Shown here: positions 14,232 through 40,816 of the stretch, one piece after another
Layout of the letters: every line of letters starts with the position of its first letter
Position numbering within the stretch: position 1 is the stretch's first letter
DNA from: Lysobacteraceae bacterium
Lineage (GTDB): Bacteria > Pseudomonadota > Gammaproteobacteria > Xanthomonadales > Xanthomonadaceae
Reading direction: 5' to 3'
NCBI GenBank assembly: GCA_027483045.1
Contig: JAIXVL010000146.1
Span: 1-41,475 of the forward strand
DNA length: 41,475 nt
Translations under genes and position numbers: made by a program
Notes under the pieces: model-generated
Told to the model about the DNA's origin: nothing
What the model saw: the letters and a program-made list of their open reading frames with translations, nothing else
Database searches by the model: none

Positions 14232-16417
14232 ACACCATGCCTCTTGCACGCACTCTGCTGGTTACTGCCGTCCTCACGGCCTTGGCGGGCTGCGCCACCA
14301 CGCCAGTGCCCCAGATCAGCCGCAACGATTCGCCGGGCACCACGCCGCAGATTTCGCGCAATGCCGATGGCGAAGTGATCGGCGCCGCGACCACAGGTGG
14401 CAGCGAGCCGTCCATGCAGCCCGGCACCGGCAAGATGATCAACGAGTCGGTGGCCGCGTCACCGCCGCCGCAGTTGCCTGAATCGGGCGAGGCCACGTTC
14501 AACTTCGAGGGCGAATCACTGCATGCGGTGGTGAAGGCCATCTTGGGCGACTTGCTGCAGCAGAACTATGTGATCGCGCCGACGGTGCAAGGCACGGTCA
14601 CGCTCGGAACGCCTCGGCCAGTGAGTGGCGCGCAGGCGCTTTCGCTGCTCGAAATGGTGTTGGGTTGGAACAACGCGCGCCTCGTCTGGAGCAATGGTCG
14701 TTACGCGATTCTCCCGGCCGATCAGGCCGTGGCCGGCAATCTTTCGCCACGCACAGGCAGCGCCGAGAATGCACGTGGGTTCGAATTGCGCGCGGTGCCG
14801 CTGCAGTTTGTTTCGGCCACTGAGATGGAAAAACTGCTGAAGCCCTACGTGCGACAGGGAGCGGTGGTGCAGGCCGATCAAGCACGCAATCTCATCGTGC
14901 TGTCCGGCAGTCGCAGCGAGTTGGAAAACTATCTGCGCACGGTGCGCATTTTCGACGTGGATTGGTTGGCCGGCATGTCGGTGGGTGTGTTCCCGATCCA
15001 AAGCTCCGAGTCCGAAAAAATCGTGACCGCGCTGGAGCGCATGTTTGGGCCGGAAAGTGGTTCGCCGCTCTCGGGCATGTTCCGTTTCCTGCCGGTGGAA
15101 GGCAGCAACTCCATCATCGTGATCACGCCGCAAGCGCGTTACTTGCGCGATGCACGCGAGTGGATCGAAAAGCTCGACATGGCGGGTGAGGGTTCGCGCC
15201 TCTTCGTTTACGAAGTGAAGTACATGAAGGCAGCGGACCTGGCTTCGCAATTGGGCACTGTGTTCGATGCCAATGTGTCGGCTTCCAACTCCAGCGATAG
15301 CCCAAGCGTGATGCCGGGGCTGACGCCGGTCGGTGTGGGAGCGGTATCTCGGCCAGCCGATCAGATTTCGCAGACACCCCAGCCCGTGAACAGTGGCGGC
15401 ACGCCGCCGAGCGGGAGTGGCGAGTCTGGCATCGGCATCAGTGCCATCGATGAGAGCAATGCCTTGATGGTGCGTGCCAGTCCCGCGCAGTGGGAATCGA
15501 TTCGTCGCGCGATCGATCGTTTGGATGTGATGCCTGCGCAGGTGCACATCGAGGCGCAGGTGCTTGAGGTCGCGTTGACGGGTAGCTTGAGCTACGGCGT
15601 GAATTGGTTCTTCGACAATGCTGTGCCCGCAGACTTGCGTAACACGCGGCCCCGGCGGGCTAGCTTGGGTCAGGTGGCTGGGCAGTTGGCACAGACAGGA
15701 ACGGCTGGAGGCCCGGCAAGTTTGGCCTACACCTTCACTTCCGGCGATGCGGCGGCCATCGTGAGCGCTTTGGATAGCGAGAGTGATGTGCGGGTGCTTT
15801 CAACGCCTTCCATCTTCGTGCGAAACAACGCGCTGGCTACGCTTAATGTGGGTCAGGACTTGGCGGTGCAAAGCACCAGCTTTACGCCGGGCACGGGCAC
15901 GGGGACGCAGCCCGGCAACAACACGATCAGCAGCATTCAGTACCTTCGCACCGGCACACAGCTTTCCGTGCGGCCGCGAATTGGCGGCGATGGCATGGTG
16001 TTCTTGGAGATTCAACAGGTGATCAGTTCGCCGACGAATGATCCAGGTGCAGGCGGCAATCCCAACGTCAGCACGCGAGACGTCAAGACGGAAGCGATGG
16101 TGCGCGATGGCGAAACGGTGATGTTGGCGGGCCTGATCAGCCAAACCGACACCAAAGGGTCCTCGGGATTCCCAGGCCTCTCGCGCGTGCCGGTGGTGGG
16201 CGGTTTGTTCGGGCGCCAGAGCCAATCGCAGAACCGCACGGAAGTGGTGTTGCTCATCACGCCGCGCGTGGTGCGCACGCCGGAAGCCACCCGCACGCTT
16301 ACGGACGATTACATCGAGCGTTTCCATGGTTTGGAGCCATTGCGTCGCGCGCGTGCCGAGGCTCTGACCGCTCCTGCAGAGCCGGCCGCTGCTCCGGCTG
16401 AAGACGCGGGTCCTTGA
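14228..16417 (+). CDS. gspD: Type II secretion outer-membrane secretin GspD (lipoprotein)
   Basis: The 729-residue secretin forms the outer-membrane channel. It begins with a lipoprotein signal (LLVTAVLTALAGC), so the secretin itself should be acylated, as reported for XpsD. In order: a short linker with the hexamer PQISRN repeated twice; N0 (from FNFEGESLHAVV); N1 and N2; N3 with a Ser/Gly/Pro-rich insertion (about residues 355–400); and the C-terminal secretin domain with VPVVGGLFGRQSQSQNRTEV and LLITPRVV near residues 655–680. ATG 14228 overlaps the previous stop (ATGA); ATG 14237 is an alternative. The tail after the beta-barrel is Ala/Pro-rich. Last gene of the gsp set, 10 bases before the exporter permease. 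Confidence 0.97.
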   Translation: MNTMPLARTLLVTAVLTALAGCATTPVPQISRNDSPGTTPQISRNADGEVIGAATTGGSEPSMQPGTGKMINESVAASPPPQLPESGEATFNFEGESLHAVVKAILGDLLQQNYVIAPTVQGTVTLGTPRPVSGAQALSLLEMVLGWNNARLVWSNGRYAILPADQAVAGNLSPRTGSAENARGFELRAVPLQFVSATEMEKLLKPYVRQGAVVQADQARNLIVLSGSRSELENYLRTVRIFDVDWLAGMSVGVFPIQSSESEKIVTALERMFGPESGSPLSGMFRFLPVEGSNSIIVITPQARYLRDAREWIEKLDMAGEGSRLFVYEVKYMKAADLASQLGTVFDANVSASNSSDSPSVMPGLTPVGVGAVSRPADQISQTPQPVNSGGTPPSGSGESGIGISAIDESNALMVRASPAQWESIRRAIDRLDVMPAQVHIEAQVLEVALTGSLSYGVNWFFDNAVPADLRNTRPRRASLGQVAGQLAQTGTAGGPASLAYTFTSGDAAAIVSALDSESDVRVLSTPSIFVRNNALATLNVGQDLAVQSTSFTPGTGTGTQPGNNTISSIQYLRTGTQLSVRPRIGGDGMVFLEIQQVISSPTNDPGAGGNPNVSTRDVKTEAMVRDGETVMLAGLISQTDTKGSSGFPGLSRVPVVGGLFGRQSQSQNRTEVVLLITPRVVRTPEATRTLTDDYIERFHGLEPLRRARAEALTAPAEPAAAPAEDAGP

Positions 16418-29155: not shown

Positions 29156-29617
29156 CTAGTAGCGCAGGCCCACTTTGCGGAAGGCCTTGGCCAGCAAAAA
29201 CAGCGGGCCAACCAACAAGTACTGGAGGTCCTCCAGAAAGCTAGGTTTCTTGCCTTCAATTTCGTGGCCAATGAACTGAGCCACCCAAGTCACCACAAAC
29301 ACGCCCAGTGCCACCCAGCCCAAGTGCGGCACCACGAAGAACGAGGCAATTGCAGCCGCCGAGAACAGCGTCATCACCGCGGTCATCGGCCATGAGAGGC
29401 GCGCGTAGTAGACCAGCGAGAACACCGAGAAGCCGTAGCAAAGCCACGGGTGAATCACGAACATCAGCGCCAAAGTGCACCACACGATGAGTGGCACGCA
29501 GACCCAATGCACCACGACATTCGTGGGGTGGCGGTGGGATTCCGCGTAATGGCCCACCAGCATGTCGATTCGGCGGCGCTCTCTCGGCTGGGGAAGGTCG
29601 GTGGCGGTGGTGCTCAT
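29156..29617 (-). CDS. Mpo1-like (DUF962/YGL010w family) membrane protein
   Basis: The 153-residue protein has about four membrane helices and the family's conserved histidines: HYAESHRHPTNVVVHW at the N terminus and IGHEIEGKKP near the C terminus. The yeast member Mpo1 is an iron-dependent dioxygenase that shortens 2-hydroxy fatty acids; bacterial members are mostly uncharacterised. ATG 29617 is preferred over GTG 29629 because GAGAA lies about 6 bases upstream. It sits between ribD and ribE on the same strand, 60 bases after ribD. No link to riboflavin synthesis is evident. Confidence 0.88.
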   Translation of the reverse strand: MSTTATDLPQPRERRRIDMLVGHYAESHRHPTNVVVHWVCVPLIVWCTLALMFVIHPWLCYGFSVFSLVYYARLSWPMTAVMTLFSAAAIASFFVVPHLGWVALGVFVVTWVAQFIGHEIEGKKPSFLEDLQYLLVGPLFLLAKAFRKVGLRY

Positions 29618-35468: not shown

Positions 35469-36302
35469 ATGATGTCGGATGTTGTCGCCGGAACCCTTTA
35501 TGTCGTGGCCACGCCTATTGGCCACCTCGGCGACCTCACGCCCCGAGCCCGCAGTGTGCTGTCGGGCGTGACCGTGATTGGCGCCGAATACACCCGCAAT
35601 ACCGGCGGGCTTTTGGCACATTTCGGCATCGGCACGCCCACGATTGCCGTGCACGACCACAACGAAGGCGATGTGGCGGCCAAGCTGGTGGCGCGCCTGC
35701 AGGCCGGCGACAGCCTGGCCTTGGTCTCGGATGCGGGCACTCCGCTGGTATCTGACCCCGGCTACCGGCTCGTGCGCGCGGCCCGCGAAGCCGGCTGCCC
35801 CGTGGTGCCCATTCCCGGTGCGTGCGCGGCGATTGCGGCGTTGAGCGTGGCCGGCATTCCCAGCGACCGCTTCTGCTTTGAGGGCTTTTTGCCAGCCAAA
35901 GCCGGGGCGCGGCGCGAGCGTTTGGCCTCGCTGGTGGGCGAAACACGCACCTTGGTGTTCTACGAAAGCGCGCATCGCATCGAGGAGATGCTGGCGGATG
36001 CGGTGGCGATTTTCGGCCCCGAGCGCGAGGCCAGCTTGGGCCGCGAACTCACCAAGCGTTTCGAAACGCTGTTGGGACCCACGCTCGCGGCGATTGCTGA
36101 AGCGGTGGCCGCAGACCCGAATCAGCGACGCGGAGAATTCGTGCTGGTGGTGCGCGGCAATGAGGATCAAGAGGCTGCGCAATTGGCCGAAGGCAAGCGT
36201 CTGTACGCCAAGTTGGCGGAGCACATGAAGCCATCGGCGGCCGCCAAGCTGGCTGCCGAGCTCAGTGGTGCCCCGCGCAAATCGCTTTACGGCGGCGAAT
36301 AG
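35469..36302 (+). CDS. rsmI: 16S rRNA 2'-O-methyltransferase RsmI
   Basis: The 277-residue enzyme methylates the ribose of C1402 in 16S rRNA. Family marks are TLYVVATPIGHLGDLTPRA, ALVSDAGTPLVSDPGYRLV, VPIPGACAAIAALSVAG and FEGFLPAKAGAR. The usual AEDTRHT motif reads AEYTRNT here, with tyrosine for the conserved aspartate. AGGAG at 35460–35464 supports the ATG at 35469 (35472 is also possible). It is followed by rnpB after about 50 bases. Confidence 0.96.
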   Translation: MMSDVVAGTLYVVATPIGHLGDLTPRARSVLSGVTVIGAEYTRNTGGLLAHFGIGTPTIAVHDHNEGDVAAKLVARLQAGDSLALVSDAGTPLVSDPGYRLVRAAREAGCPVVPIPGACAAIAALSVAGIPSDRFCFEGFLPAKAGARRERLASLVGETRTLVFYESAHRIEEMLADAVAIFGPEREASLGRELTKRFETLLGPTLAAIAEAVAADPNQRRGEFVLVVRGNEDQEAAQLAEGKRLYAKLAEHMKPSAAAKLAAELSGAPRKSLYGGE

Positions 36303-36352
36303 CCGGTTTCCTCAGGTGAGGTTAGGGCTGGCGTGCCACACTGCGCGCGGAT

Positions 36353-36711
36353 GACGGAGTCGGCTAGGCAGTCGCGTCAGGGGGAAACCCCTGCCGAGGA
36401 AAGTCCGGGCTCCATAGGGCGGAGTGCCAGGTAACGCCTGGGCGGCGCGAGCTGACGGAAAGTGCAACAGAGAACAAACCGCCGAACGGCCCGCAAGGGT
36501 GCGTGGTAAGGGTGAAACGGTGGGGTAAGAGCCCACCGCCTGCGGGGCTAACGCCGCAGGGCACGGCAAACCCCACTCGGAGCAAGGCCAAATAGGGGTG
36601 CATTGGGCTGGCCCGGTCCGCACCCGGGTAGGTTGCTTGAGCCCCATCGCGAGGTGGGGCCGAGAGGAATGGCTGCCCACGACAGAACCCGGCTTATCGG
36701 CCGGCTCCGTC
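36353..36711 (+). ncRNA. rnpB: RNase P RNA (bacterial type A)
   Basis: This is the catalytic RNA that trims tRNA 5' ends with protein RnpA. The ends form a 12-bp P1 helix: 36353–36364 pairs with 36700–36711, with one G–T pair. Universally conserved blocks are GAGGAAAGTCCGGGCTCC at 36396–36413, the GGTAAGGGTGAAA segment, AGAGCCCACCGC, GGCAAACCCCAC and ACAGAACCCGGCTTATCGG at 36682–36700, all in the usual order. Length (about 359 bases) and its position after rsmI fit a gammaproteobacterium. The promoter in 36303–36352 is not clear; the best candidate is a weak TGCCACACT extended -10 near 36334–36342. Confidence 0.97.
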
Positions 36712-36793
36712 ATCCACCTTCATGCGTTTGCCAAGCGGGCACTTCAGCGGCCACAGTGCGGGCCTTCCTTCGGTTCGCGCAGGCGAGGTCATG

Positions 36794-38857
36794 ATGTCTC
36801 AGCATTCTCCGCGTGTTGGCGCGCTGCGGTGCGCGCTGTTCGCTATTGGGTTGCACTCGATGTTTGCGTTCGCAGCCGAGCCTGCGCTCGATGCGTCGCG
36901 CTTCAACTCGGCCGATATCTTCGAACTGGAAACCGCCAGCGACGTACAGATTTCGCCCGACGGTCGAACCATCGTTTACGTCCGCACACGCTATGACGTG
37001 ATGACTGATCAGCCACGCGCAAACCTGTGGACGATCGACGCAAAGAGTGGCGCGCACCGTCCCTTGCGTTCGGATGGTGACAGTCACCGTTCGCCACGTT
37101 GGTCACCGGATGGCACACGCGTGGCCTACATCTCGAATGCCGAGGGAAAGCCGCAACTTTTCGTGCGTTGGATGGATACCGGGCAGACCGCATTGCTCAC
37201 CAATCTGGTGGAAGGGCCGGGCGACCTCGCTTGGTCTCCTGATGGTCGCAGCATCGCGTTCACGAGCTTCGTGCCGAGCGACGCAGTCTCTCTGGCCACG
37301 CCGCCGGCCAAGCCGGAAGGTGCGGAGTGGGCTGACCCGGTCACGGTAATCGACCGTGCAGTGTTTCGCGCCGATGGGCAGGGGTATCTCGAGACGGGTG
37401 CCACGCACGTTTTCATCGTGTCGGCTGAGGGTGGCTCGCCGCGGCAACTCACGCAGGGTGATGCGGATCACAACGGGCCGCTCGCATTCGCGCCCAATGG
37501 CAAGACGCTGTATGTCTCTGCGAATCGCCGCGCCGATCGCGATCAACAGCCGCTCGATTCCGAGATTTACGCGCTTGATGTGGATAGCGGCGCGCTGAGC
37601 GCGCTCACCAAGCGATTGGGGCCCGACCAAAACCCCGTTGTCTCGCCTGATGGCAAGCAGATCGCGTATCTCGGTTTTGATGATCGGCAGCAGAGTTACC
37701 AGATCACGCAGCTGTATGTGATGGATGCCAATGGCGGCAACGCGCGTGCTGTCAGTGGCGCGCTCGATTTGGAACTCGAAGCGCCTGTGTGGGCGGCTGA
37801 TGGTCGCAGCCTGTTTGTGGTGTATGACCAAGCGGGTGTGCGCAAAGTGGGCCGTCTTTCGCTTGGCGGCGAATTGACCGAACTCGCTTCGCCCGTCGGT
37901 GCTTCGGATGTGGGCCGCCCTTACACGGGTGGCGGATTCTCGGTGTCGCGTTCTGGTGCGTTGGCCTTTGTTCAAGCGTCCACTTCGCGTCCGGGCGATG
38001 TGGCGCTCGTGGAAGGGCGCGGCGCAGCGCGGGTGCTGACATCACTCAACGACGATCTGTTCGGGCACAAACAATTGGGTGAAGTGGAGCGCCTGACTTG
38101 GGCGTCTTCGCACGATGGCAAAACCATAGAAGGATGGCTGGTGACGCAGCCGGGTTTCGATCCGGCGAAGAAATACCCGCTGCTGCTGGAGATTCACGGT
38201 GGCCCGCACACGGCTTATGGCCCGGTGTTCAGTGTGGAGCTGCAGCGCTTTGCAGCCGCGGGCTATCTGGTGCTGTACACCAACCCGCGCGGCAGCACGA
38301 GCTATGGCGAAGACTTCGCCAACAGCATCCACCTCGCGTATCCCGGCTTCGACTACGACGATCTGATGTCGGGAGTGGATGCGGTGATCGCACAGGGCCA
38401 TGTCGATACTCGCAATCTGTTTGTGACCGGCGGTTCGGGTGGCGGCGTGCTGACGGCATGGATCGTTGGCAAGACCGATCGCTTCCGCGCGGCGGTGGTG
38501 GCGAAGCCGGTCATCAACTGGACCAGTTTCGTGCTGACGGCCGACATGACGCCGTACTTCCACCGCTACTGGTTCAAGGCCTTCCCGTGGGAAGACCAGG
38601 CCGACTACTGGCGGCGTTCGCCCTTGTCGCTGGTGGGTAACGTGAAGACGCCGACCATGCTGCTGACCGGCGAGGCCGATTACCGCACGCCCATGTCCGA
38701 GACCGAGCAGTACTACCAGGCGCTCAAGCTGCGGCAGGTGCCCACGGCCATGGTCCGGGTGCCGGAGGCCTCGCACGGTCTGACCGGCCGGCCCAGTCAG
38801 TTCATCGCCAAAATCGACAACATCCTGGCGTGGTTTGAGCGTTATCGGGTGCCCTAG
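36794..38857 (+). CDS. Exported S9-family serine peptidase (acylaminoacyl/dipeptidyl peptidase type)
   Basis: The 687-residue protein has a signal peptide (LRCALFAIGLHSMFAFAAEP), an N-terminal beta-propeller with repeated SPDGR/SPDG blades (ISPDGRTIVYV, WSPDGTRVAYIS, WSPDGRSIAFTS), and a C-terminal alpha/beta-hydrolase domain. The predicted triad is S548 in GGSGGG, D629 in GEADYRTP and H661 in EASHGL. The family cleaves short peptides in the periplasm or outside. ATG 36794 is preferred because GAGG at 36785–36788 sits 5 bases upstream; ATG 36722, directly after rnpB, would add 24 residues before the signal. It is followed by a strong terminator. Confidence 0.93.
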   Translation: MSQHSPRVGALRCALFAIGLHSMFAFAAEPALDASRFNSADIFELETASDVQISPDGRTIVYVRTRYDVMTDQPRANLWTIDAKSGAHRPLRSDGDSHRSPRWSPDGTRVAYISNAEGKPQLFVRWMDTGQTALLTNLVEGPGDLAWSPDGRSIAFTSFVPSDAVSLATPPAKPEGAEWADPVTVIDRAVFRADGQGYLETGATHVFIVSAEGGSPRQLTQGDADHNGPLAFAPNGKTLYVSANRRADRDQQPLDSEIYALDVDSGALSALTKRLGPDQNPVVSPDGKQIAYLGFDDRQQSYQITQLYVMDANGGNARAVSGALDLELEAPVWAADGRSLFVVYDQAGVRKVGRLSLGGELTELASPVGASDVGRPYTGGGFSVSRSGALAFVQASTSRPGDVALVEGRGAARVLTSLNDDLFGHKQLGEVERLTWASSHDGKTIEGWLVTQPGFDPAKKYPLLLEIHGGPHTAYGPVFSVELQRFAAAGYLVLYTNPRGSTSYGEDFANSIHLAYPGFDYDDLMSGVDAVIAQGHVDTRNLFVTGGSGGGVLTAWIVGKTDRFRAAVVAKPVINWTSFVLTADMTPYFHRYWFKAFPWEDQADYWRRSPLSLVGNVKTPTMLLTGEADYRTPMSETEQYYQALKLRQVPTAMVRVPEASHGLTGRPSQFIAKIDNILAWFERYRVP

Positions 38858-38909
38858 AGGCCACGTCTGAGGCCCTGATCGGCCCGCGAGCCCGCGCTGA
38901 AGACTCGAG

Positions 38910-38941
38910 CGGCGCCCATTTTGGGCGCCGTTTCCATTTTT
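38910..38941 (+). terminator. Rho-independent terminator after the S9 peptidase
   Basis: CGGCGCCC (38910–38917) and GGGCGCCG (38923–38930) form an 8-bp stem with an ATTTT loop, followed by a T-rich tail (TTTCCATTTTT). It lies 53 bases after the peptidase stop and separates it from the mra promoter region. Confidence 0.85.
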
Positions 38942-39089: not shown

Positions 39090-39118
39090 TTGACACACCT
39101 TTGGCGCAGTCCTAACGT
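39090..39118 (+). promoter_or_regulatory. Sigma-70 promoter of the mra/dcw cluster
   Basis: A perfect -35 TTGACA (39090–39095) and a -10 TAACGT (39113–39118) are separated by 17 bases. Transcription should start near 39125, about 37 bases before the mraZ start. This is the best promoter seen in the window and drives mraZ–rsmH–ftsL–ftsI. Confidence 0.75.
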
Positions 39119-39162
39119 GGGCGCCTGAGGGAATTTCTGGTTTTTTGTGGGAGTTGGTGGAG
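39118..39162 (+). promoter_or_regulatory. MraZ operator: five TGGG-like half-sites at 10-bp spacing
   Basis: Pentamers TGGGC (39118), AGGGA (39128), TGGTT (39138), TGGGA (39148) and TGGAG (39158) each begin exactly 10 bases apart. MraZ of E. coli binds TGGGN repeats separated by 5 bases upstream of its own gene, so this is the expected autoregulatory site. It spans from the -10 box to the start codon and covers the ribosome-binding site (GGGAG 39149–39153). Repeats 1 and 4 fit TGGG perfectly; the others have one mismatch. Confidence 0.72.
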
Positions 39163-39608
39163 TGTTCCAGGGCGAGACGGCCATCACGATTGACGACAAG
39201 GGGCGGCTGGCCATTCCGGTGGCCTTCCGCGACGTCGTTGCGCGTGAGTGTGGCAACCGCTTGGTGCTCACCTACAACCCCTTCGATCAGGGCTCGCTCT
39301 ACCTCTACCCCGAGGCTGGCTGGCAGACCGTGCGCGATCAGATCGTCGCCTTGTCGCCGTTTGTCCCGGAGCACCGCGTGTTGCAGCGCATGTTGGTGGG
39401 TGCCGCCACGCCGCTCGAGCCGGATTCGGCCGGTCGCGTGCTGCTGCCGCCGAGCATGCGCGGCACCGCGGGCATCGAGAAAAAAGCCGTGCTGATGGGC
39501 ATGGGTGGCCGACTCGAGTTGTGGAGTGAGCAGGCTCACATCGCGCAGATGCGCCAGACCATCGGTTCGGCCGGGGTCAGTGCAGCGATGCAGGACTTGC
39601 GGCTCTAG
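39162..39608 (+). CDS. mraZ: Transcriptional regulator MraZ
   Basis: The 148-residue DNA-binding protein has two SpoVT/AbrB-like domains: DDKGRLAIPVAFRD near the N terminus and DSAGRVLLPPSMRG near the middle. It represses its own promoter in the dcw cluster. GTG 39162 is chosen because it yields MFQGETAITIDDKGR, aligned to the family start, and GGGAG is 8 bases upstream; GTG 39147 would add five residues from the operator. rsmH follows after 3 bases. Confidence 0.96.
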   Translation: MFQGETAITIDDKGRLAIPVAFRDVVARECGNRLVLTYNPFDQGSLYLYPEAGWQTVRDQIVALSPFVPEHRVLQRMLVGAATPLEPDSAGRVLLPPSMRGTAGIEKKAVLMGMGGRLELWSEQAHIAQMRQTIGSAGVSAAMQDLRL

Positions 39609-39611
39609 CCG

Positions 39612-40550
39612 ATGGTGCCCGCGCCCATCGCACCGCAACCCTCTCATCGGCCGGTGCTTTGGACGCCGGTCTTGGAAGGGCTGGCTGTTAAACCGTCGGG
39701 TGTTTACCTCGACGGCACGTTTGGCCGCGGCGGGCATGCGCGCGGTGTATTGGCGCAACTGGGCCCGGAGGGCCGTTTGTTGGTGATGGACAAGGACCCC
39801 GAAGCGATTCGCGAAGCACTGGCCTTGCAGGCCATCGATGCGCGCGTGCGTGTTCGCCAAGACAGCTTTGCCAATCTTGAAGCTTGGGGCGATACCGCTA
39901 CCGGCTTGGACGGTGTGCTGTTCGATTTGGGTGTGTCGTCGCCGCAGTTGGATGTGGCCGAGCGCGGCTTTAGCTTCCGCAACGATGGTCCGTTGGATAT
40001 GCGCATGGACCCCGATTCGGGGCAGAGCGCTGCGGATTGGATCAACAGCGCGCCCGAGTCAGAAATCGCCGATGTGCTGTGGACCTATGGCGAAGAACGC
40101 CAAAGCCGCCGCATCGCCAAAGCACTGGTGGCGCGCCGCAGCGAAAAGCCGTTCGAGCGCACGGGCGACCTGGCCGACGCCATTGCCAAACTGCTCGGTC
40201 GCGGTGACGGCAAGACGCATCCCGCGACCCGCAGCTTTCAGGCCATTCGCATCCACATCAATCGCGAACTCGCCGACCTGCACTTGGGCCTTGAGGCCGC
40301 AGAGCGTCGCTTGAAGTCCGGCGGGCGCTTGGCGGTGATCAGCTTCCATTCGTTGGAAGATCGCATCGTCAAACAGTTCATCGCCGAGCGCGCTAAGCCG
40401 CCCGCAGGAAACCGTCGTATGCCGGTTGCTGTGGCCTTTGTGCCGCGCTTGCGCTCCATTGGCGATGCCACCAAAGCTGACGATGCCGAACTGGCCGACA
40501 ACCCGCGCGCTCGCAGCGCGGTGTTGCGTGTGGCGGAGAAAGTGGCATGA
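39612..40550 (+). CDS. rsmH: 16S rRNA m4C1402 methyltransferase RsmH
   Basis: The 312-residue enzyme (formerly MraW) N4-methylates C1402, the same nucleotide whose ribose is methylated by RsmI, encoded 3.3 kb upstream. Family marks are [13 protein letters not shown], the SAM site [44 protein letters not shown], and [20 protein letters not shown]. The frame overlaps ftsL by 4 bases. Confidence 0.98.
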
Positions 40551-40816
40551 GCTTGCGCGCGTTCGTGCTGCTGCTCTTGCTTGGCTTGGTGGCCACCAGC
40601 GCGATCGCGATGGTGCTCACGCGGCACCAACATCGTCAGGCCTTCATTGAGTTGTCGCGGCTTGAGCGCGAGCGCGATGATCTCAACATCGAATTCGGTC
40701 GCCTGCAGATTGAGCAGGCGACCTGGTCGGAAACCAATCGCATCGAACAGATTGCGGTCGGAAAGCTCGGCATGAAGTTCCCCGAGGGTGCGGAAGTCGT
40801 GGTGGTGCAGCCATGA
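40547..40816 (+). CDS. ftsL: Cell division protein FtsL
   Basis: The 89-residue bitopic protein has a short cytoplasmic tail, one membrane helix ([19 protein letters not shown]) and a periplasmic leucine-zipper-like coiled coil ([20 protein letters not shown]). It forms the FtsQLB complex of the divisome. Size, topology and position between rsmH and ftsI identify it; the sequence is weakly conserved in the family. It starts inside the rsmH stop and overlaps ftsI by 4 bases. Confidence 0.93.

What the first reader, a model, noticed from the sequence alone, without database searches (positions are those of the whole stretch)
39118..39162. Five-fold MraZ half-site array reaching the start codon
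Five TGGG-like pentamers start at 39118, 39128, 39138, 39148 and 39158, exactly one helical turn apart. My recollection is that the E. coli site has fewer repeats. The array covers the transcription start, the ribosome-binding site and the start codon, so bound MraZ could block both polymerase and the message start region. The spacing is seen directly; the binding is inferred.
Basis: partly seen in the sequence, partly recalled or inferred. Interest (0 to 1): 0.5.

Follow-up and report, generated by a model that had tools for sequence, protein, structure and literature searches.

The report
Five-box MraZ operator at dcw promoter
A row of five short DNA repeats, one helical turn apart, sits on the promoter of the bacterial cell-division gene cluster and is very probably where the repressor MraZ binds to shut off its own operon; the kind of site is known, but here it is one or two repeats longer than the described ones and its first repeat is merged with the promoter itself.

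Summary
Five TGGG-like units start at 39118, 39128, 39138, 39148 and 39158, exactly 10 bp apart. The five-unit pattern occurs once without mismatch in the assembled 2.8-Mb genome, with nothing at 1-2 mismatches. Downstream lie mraZ (TIGR00242, over cut-off), rsmH and ftsL; the genome belongs with Silanimonas, Lysobacterales.

The array is a conserved MraZ operator. All 81 Lysobacterales mraZ promoters examined carry it, 46 with five units by my cut-off and 35 with four. Of 131 gammaproteobacterial mraZ promoters, 128 have a 10-bp array, most often of four units. None of 12 genomes without an mraZ match has a clear one before rsmH.

The units are locked to the -10 box, not to the start codon: unit 1 shares its T with the last base of the -10, while the gap to the start codon varies from 0 to 81 nt. 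Control of transcription is therefore the likely function; contact with the start codon goes with a leader 15 nt shorter than in congeners. TATAGT|G, a -10 fused with a first unit, is common in the sampled gammas (88 of 131); E. coli lacks that unit. Binding is inferred, not shown.

The parts
39090..39095 (+). -35 hexamer TTGACA
   Evidence: read directly; TTGACA with at most 1 mismatch lies 16-32 nt upstream of unit 1 in 81 of 81 Lysobacterales promoters; not reported by the promoter scan
39113..39118 (+). -10 hexamer TAACGT; its last base is the T of unit 1
   Evidence: read directly; a TAnnnT hexamer fused with unit 1 and followed by units 2-4 is found in 81 of 81 Lysobacterales promoters, 0.1 of 81 in shuffles
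39118..39122 (+). MraZ box, unit 1 (TGGGC; GTGGG in register)
39128..39132 (+). MraZ box, unit 2 (AGGGA; GAGGG in register), a divergent unit
39138..39142 (+). MraZ box, unit 3 (TGGTT), a divergent unit
39148..39152 (+). MraZ box, unit 4 (TGGGA); also holds the likely Shine-Dalgarno GGGAG (39149-39153, by eye)
39158..39162 (+). MraZ box, unit 5 (TGGAG); last base is the first base of the start codon
   Evidence: TGG invariant in 8 of 8 Silanimonas-group sequences
39162..39608 (+). mraZ, GTG start, 148 aa, MraZ repressor
   Evidence: TIGR00242 101 bits, cut-off 98.35, scanned from the in-frame GTG at 39147; start set by alignment with relatives that begin MFQGE
39612..40550 (+). rsmH (mraW)
   Evidence: TIGR00006 327 bits
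40547..40816 (+). ftsL
   Evidence: TIGR02209 80.5 bits

Best explanation
The array is the operator of the MraZ repressor at the promoter of the division and cell-wall (dcw) cluster. An oligomeric MraZ ring presents several DNA-binding faces at one-turn intervals to one side of the helix and clamps boxes from the -10 to the start codon. Because box 1 shares bases with the -10 hexamer and boxes 2-5 cover the start site and early transcribed region, bound MraZ should exclude RNA polymerase, giving negative autoregulation of mraZ-rsmH-ftsL and the genes behind them. Shown: the sequence, its conservation, its phase with the -10 and its link to mraZ. Inferred: binding, occupancy of all five boxes, repression, and the oligomeric state of this protein.
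For: mraZ directly downstream, then rsmH and ftsL. 10-bp array in 128 of 131 gammaproteobacterial mraZ promoters, with TGG-TGG pairs at distance 10: 261 against 9 in one shuffle of each sequence. 81 of 81 Lysobacterales promoters have units 1-4 on a -10-like hexamer (shuffles 0.1 of 81), 46 of them a fifth unit. Seven congeners keep the five units (unit 1 is TGAG in one) while the leader after the array varies. 12 of 12 genomes without an mraZ match lack a clear array before rsmH: best three-unit scores -11.3 to 1.6, below the 99% shuffle level of 3.2, against a median of 18.7 in the 131. Only perfect site in the assembled genome. MraZ protein intact: both D-x3-R motifs (D11-R15, D88-R92) invariant in 30 of 30 sequences; the model matches the M. 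genitalium MraZ-promoter cryoEM entries 9sz7 (Z 17.7) and 9r4j (Z 17.4) (titles). In print: B. cenocepacia MraZ shifts a promoter fragment in which the authors found four 7-nt repeats with 3-nt spacers over the start site (PMC7761207, passages); a mollicute site (AAAGTGKN3)3 (PMC5282649, passages).
Against: No binding or expression data for this organism. With the class-wide unit model (corrected) 19 of 81 Lysobacterales fall below the 99% shuffle level (4 below the 95% level), and in the window only units 4 and 5 score well (3.97, 2.28; units 1-3: -2.98, -0.50, -0.78; best three 5.5 against a 99% level of 0.7), so units 1-3 may be weak or unbound. Two of the 12 mraZ-less regions (1.6 and 1.4) exceed the 95% shuffle level of -0.6. 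Transcription start not mapped; the promoter scan found nothing. Mollicute MraZ also bound a repeat whose spacing differs by 1 nt (PMC5282649), so exact spacing may not be needed for binding. Counts are not corrected for relatedness.
Confidence: 0.91

Rival explanations
1. The G-rich tract is a promoter G-quadruplex that controls mraZ, as reported for S. aureus and said there to be conserved across mraZ promoters.
For: PMC11796246 (abstract and passages) reports a G-quadruplex in the S. aureus mraZ promoter, with spectra and reporter data, and conserved G-quadruplex-forming motifs in other bacteria. Three-tetrad patterns are mildly enriched here: loops 1-7 in 6 of 131 class (shuffles 1.0) and 2 of 81 Lysobacterales (0.7); loops 1-12 in 11 of 131 (3.3) and 15 of 81 (1.6); two-tetrad loops 1-7 in 49 of 131 (42.5) and 40 of 81 (25.2).
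Against: The window region matches none of these three patterns, and most promoters lack the three-tetrad ones. What is conserved is the 10-bp period and the T before GG (99% in the trained unit), which a quadruplex does not need. S. aureus itself was not examined here.
Confidence: 0.03
2. The array acts in the mRNA: as a structure or protein site over the ribosome-binding site and start codon, controlling translation.
For: In the window unit 4 holds the likely Shine-Dalgarno and unit 5 touches the GTG; 12 of 46 five-unit promoters have the start codon within 2 nt of the array.
Against: Gap to the start codon varies 0-81 nt in five-unit and 3-57 nt in four-unit Lysobacterales, median 26 in the class. 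Unit 1 lies upstream of the inferred transcript start. Predicted RNA folding of the window leader is weaker than most shuffles (z 1.75).
Confidence: 0.04
3. A different regulator, not MraZ, reads the 10-bp array.
For: No binding was tested for this protein; mollicute HsdC binds a similar direct repeat whose spacing differs by 1 nt (PMC5282649, passage).
Against: Array and mraZ occur together (128 of 131) and no clear array is found in 12 of 12 genomes without an mraZ match; MraZ orthologs bind such repeats in other species.
Confidence: 0.02
4. Chance run of G in a G+C-rich genome.
For: 2 of 1500 shuffles reach the score if any spacing of 6-15 is allowed.
Against: Only perfect site in the assembled genome and conserved in the relatives examined.
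Confidence: 0.005

Closest known systems
E. coli K-12 MraZ operator at Pmra (sequence from NC_000913.3; Eraso et al. 2014 is cited in papers I saw but was not held)
   Same: TGGG units 10 bp apart, between the -10 and mraZ; MraZ with the same D-x3-R motifs
   Different: Three perfect units plus a degenerate fourth; by eye the first unit starts 9 nt after the -10 (TAAACT), so it corresponds to unit 2 of the window, and no unit lies on the -10.
Burkholderia cenocepacia PmraBc MraZ site (PMC7761207, passages)
   Same: 10-bp direct repeats (7+3 nt) downstream of the -10, over the transcription start; MraZ shift of the fragment shown
   Different: Four repeats; the start site they overlap is 100 bp upstream of the mraZ start codon, so the array does not reach that codon
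Mollicute MraZ boxes; cryoEM 'MraZ in complex with 4 box promoter' of M. genitalium, 9sz7 (title only)
   Same: Direct repeats at the mraZ promoter; same protein fold (Z 17.7, rmsd 2.6, 133 aligned)
   Different: Box sequence AAAGTG(T/G); three or four boxes instead of five

Membership tests
MraZ protein family (TIGR00242) | Profile score over the curated cut-off | tested here: met
   101 bits against 98.35
MraZ protein family (TIGR00242) | Two D-x3-R half motifs | tested here: met
   D11, R15, D88, R92 invariant in 30 of 30 aligned sequences; that these residues bind DNA is recalled
MraZ operator | Direct TGGG/GTGG repeats with a 10-bp period | tested here: met
MraZ operator | Placed at the promoter of mraZ / the dcw cluster | tested here: met
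   the promoter was read by eye and supported by a conserved TTGACA, but not reported by the scan
MraZ operator | Occurs with mraZ and not without it | tested here: met
   128 of 131 with; no clear array in 12 of 12 without an mraZ match, two of them above the 95% but below the 99% shuffle level
MraZ operator | Bound by the cognate MraZ, represses the operon | not testable with these tools
   needs a shift, footprint or reporter
Promoter G-quadruplex | Four G tracts with short loops | tested here: not met
   window matches none of three patterns

The most novel reading that the evidence does not exclude
In most Gammaproteobacteria the first MraZ box is fused with the -10 hexamer (TATAGT|G in place of TATAAT, next box exactly 10 bp on), so MraZ and sigma-70 read the same bases, and E. 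coli, the model, is an exception without this box. The Lysobacterales five-box form, with two divergent boxes in the middle, would then need more DNA-binding faces than a 4-box promoter, so operator length (three to five or more boxes) would set repression strength or reflect ring size.
Probability: 0.4. Interest if true: 0.45.

Novelty: new variant of a known kind. Interest (0 to 1): 0.3.

Why it matters
It gives a conserved, testable picture of how the cell-division cluster is switched: boxes locked to the -10 imply direct competition with RNA polymerase, and the natural series of three, four and five boxes, beside the new MraZ-promoter structures, lets box number be tested against ring size and repression. 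It also offers another reading of the 'conserved G-quadruplex' reported in mraZ promoters: in the promoters examined here the conserved feature is the operator period. Otherwise it is a known type of site.

Tried and rejected
RNA structure of the leader: folding weaker than most shuffles. G-quadruplex: patterns not matched in the window. Start codon at 39147 (in-frame GTG in unit 4): rejected, since by eye the upstream T run has no Shine-Dalgarno and relatives align from 39162. Class-wide unit model applied to Lysobacterales: it under-counts because units 2 and 3 diverge there, so an anchored count was used. The anchor alone (TAnnnT plus 3 of 4 of unit 1) is weak: shuffles meet it in 29.6 of 81; together with units 2-4 they meet it in 0.1 of 81. 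Possible repeat element at 36280-36720: one copy only in the assembled own genome. Literature: ten searches and the passages I opened showed no five-box MraZ site and no -10-fused box; the library lacks most subscription papers, including Eraso 2014, so this is no proof of absence. Unit counts above four in the class survey are upper estimates: each added end unit passes a 5% per-unit threshold, so some fives to sevens are chance extensions. The split into five- and four-unit Lysobacterales depends on the cut-off: 11 of the 35 'four-unit' promoters match 2 of 4 bases at unit 5, some looking like worn fifth units.

Full report
What is there. The window's right end holds the start of a dcw cluster: mraZ (39162-39608), rsmH (39612-40550) and ftsL (40547-40816), all by curated profiles. 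Upstream of mraZ I read a promoter TTGACA (39090-39095), 17 nt, TAACGT (39113-39118); the tool's scan, which asks for more of TATAAT, does not report it. From the last base of the -10 on, five TGGG-like units follow at exactly 10-bp steps: TGGGC, AGGGA, TGGTT, TGGGA, TGGAG. The last base of unit 5 is the G of the GTG start codon.

Is it more than chance. Best five-unit score 17 of 20: 1 of 5000 dinucleotide shuffles reaches it at 10-bp spacing, 2 of 1500 at any spacing 6-15. In the own genome (2.8 Mb, 313 contigs, 93% complete) the five-unit pattern, which was written from this site, has one hit without mismatch, none with one or two, and 12 with three; the pattern read backwards gave 5. Two of the 12 lie in the window itself, more than its shuffles give; not followed.

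Relatives. The nearest genomes are Silanimonas and two unnamed Lysobacteraceae of the same genus group (mraZ 91-97% identical in seven). In an alignment of the window with these seven, the cores and the 10-bp step are kept (one sequence has TGAG in unit 1), while the leader between unit 5 and the start codon varies and is 15 nt shorter in the window, where the start is GTG instead of ATG. I then used all 80 loci that one search returned (the best 80 of 209; a few records carry other names, such as Ramlibacter or Rhizobium MAGs) plus the window. In 81 of 81 a TAnnnT hexamer shares its last T with a first unit and units 2-4 follow; shuffles give 0.1 of 81, though the hexamer plus unit 1 alone would come up in 29.6 of 81 shuffles. 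A TTGACA with at most one mismatch lies 16-32 nt upstream in 81 of 81. A fifth unit (3 of 4 bases or more) is present in 46 and not in 35; 11 of the 35 match 2 of 4 there. In the 38 five-unit promoters outside the Silanimonas group, TGG of units 1 and 4 is invariant and that of unit 5 nearly so (97-100%; the group was chosen by unit 5, so that part is partly circular), units 2 and 3 have the divergent forms (A/T)GGG after G and (G/T)GG followed by T, and conservation falls off after unit 5. The gap from the array to the start codon is 0-81 nt in the five-unit set (12 of 46 within 2 nt) and 3-57 nt in the four-unit set.

Wider survey. In Gammaproteobacteria 162 of 187 genomes have an mraZ match. 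With 130 of these upstream regions plus E. coli, a 10-bp unit learned from the data reads A-G-T-G-G-(G), then A-rich; 128 of 131 have an array above the 99% shuffle level, with 2, 3, 4, 5, 6 and 7 units in 2, 29, 71, 15, 10 and 1 (training and test set are the same, and counts over four are upper estimates). Distances between TGG triplets: 261 at 10, 153 at 20 and 48 at 30, against 9, 10 and 13 in one shuffle of each sequence. The median gap to the start is 26 nt, and 5 of 128 are within 3 nt. So five units is longer than usual, not unique. Against my reading: under this class-wide unit 19 of 81 Lysobacterales, not the window, fall below the 99% shuffle level (4 of 81 below the 95% level), and in the window units 1-3 score poorly (-2.98, -0.50, -0.78) and units 4-5 well (3.97, 2.28).

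The -10. Counting plain strings in the 131 regions, TATAGT occurs in 96, TATATT in 13 and TATAAT in 10; TATAGTG occurs in 88, and in 75 of those the only TGG 5-15 nt on is exactly 10 bp from the T of the hexamer. In 71 of 128 arrays the first unit's T is the last base of the best -10-like hexamer, 69 of these being TATAGT. The window's TAACGTGGG is the same arrangement. E. coli has TAAACT and its first unit 9 nt later (by eye), so it lacks this unit. I saw no description of this in the passages I opened.

Specificity for mraZ. 25 of 187 class genomes have no mraZ match; of the 20 listed, 13 have an rsmH match, one of them a fragment at a contig end. In the 12 others the 500 nt before rsmH hold no clear array: best three-unit scores -11.3 to 1.6, 99% shuffle level 3.2, median 18.7 in the 131. 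Two of the 12 (1.6, 1.4) exceed the 95% level of -0.6.

Protein. Both D-x3-R motifs are invariant in 30 of 30 aligned MraZ. An AlphaFold model (mean pLDDT 76, 20 sequences) matches M. pneumoniae UPF0040 (Z 18.5) and M. genitalium MraZ, including 'MraZ in complex with 4 box promoter', 9sz7 (Z 17.7) (titles only).

Mechanism. The best reading is negative autoregulation by an MraZ ring that grips several boxes on one face of the helix and occludes the -10 and start region. The overlap with the Shine-Dalgarno and start codon in the window goes with a short leader and is not conserved. G-quadruplex, RNA-level and other-regulator readings are weaker for the reasons given under rivals.

Verdict. A real, conserved operator of a known kind, longer than the three- and four-box sites I saw described, with a -10-fused first box that deserves a direct test.

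Noticed in passing
L045, L057, L059-L063, L070, L075, L076, L078-L080, L083, L085, L086, L088, L090, L092, L094, L095, L099, L107-L109, L112 (mraZ promoters; not in the window): A 19-bp inverted repeat AGTCTC-N7-GAGACT (four of them with one changed base) fills the -35/-10 spacer in 26 of 81 Lysobacterales mraZ promoters: 23 of 35 four-box and 3 of 46 five-box ones. Looks like a second operator, possibly traded against the fifth box; confounded by relatedness.
   Followed up: partly
window 39162-39164 against L033-L039: The window's mraZ starts with GTG and has a leader 15 nt shorter than its seven congeners, which start with ATG.
   Followed up: yes
L033, L034, L035, L036, L037, just before the mraZ ATG: Unit 5 and the leader could pair as GGTGG-4 nt-CCACC in these congeners (read by eye); the predicted folds of two of them (L036, L033) prefer other pairings and are no stronger than shuffles. 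The window lacks the second arm.
   Followed up: partly
window 16132-16174 and 29275-29317, - strand: Two further matches to the five-unit pattern with 3 mismatches each; 3 matches in the window against 0.24 expected, 0 of 100 shuffles with as many. Probably coding sequence; not examined.
   Followed up: no
window 38907-38933: Terminator-like stem-loop (12 pairs, T-rich tail) between a prolyl oligopeptidase (S9) gene ending at 38857 and the mraZ promoter; about 0.8 such sites are expected by chance in the stretch scanned.
   Followed up: no
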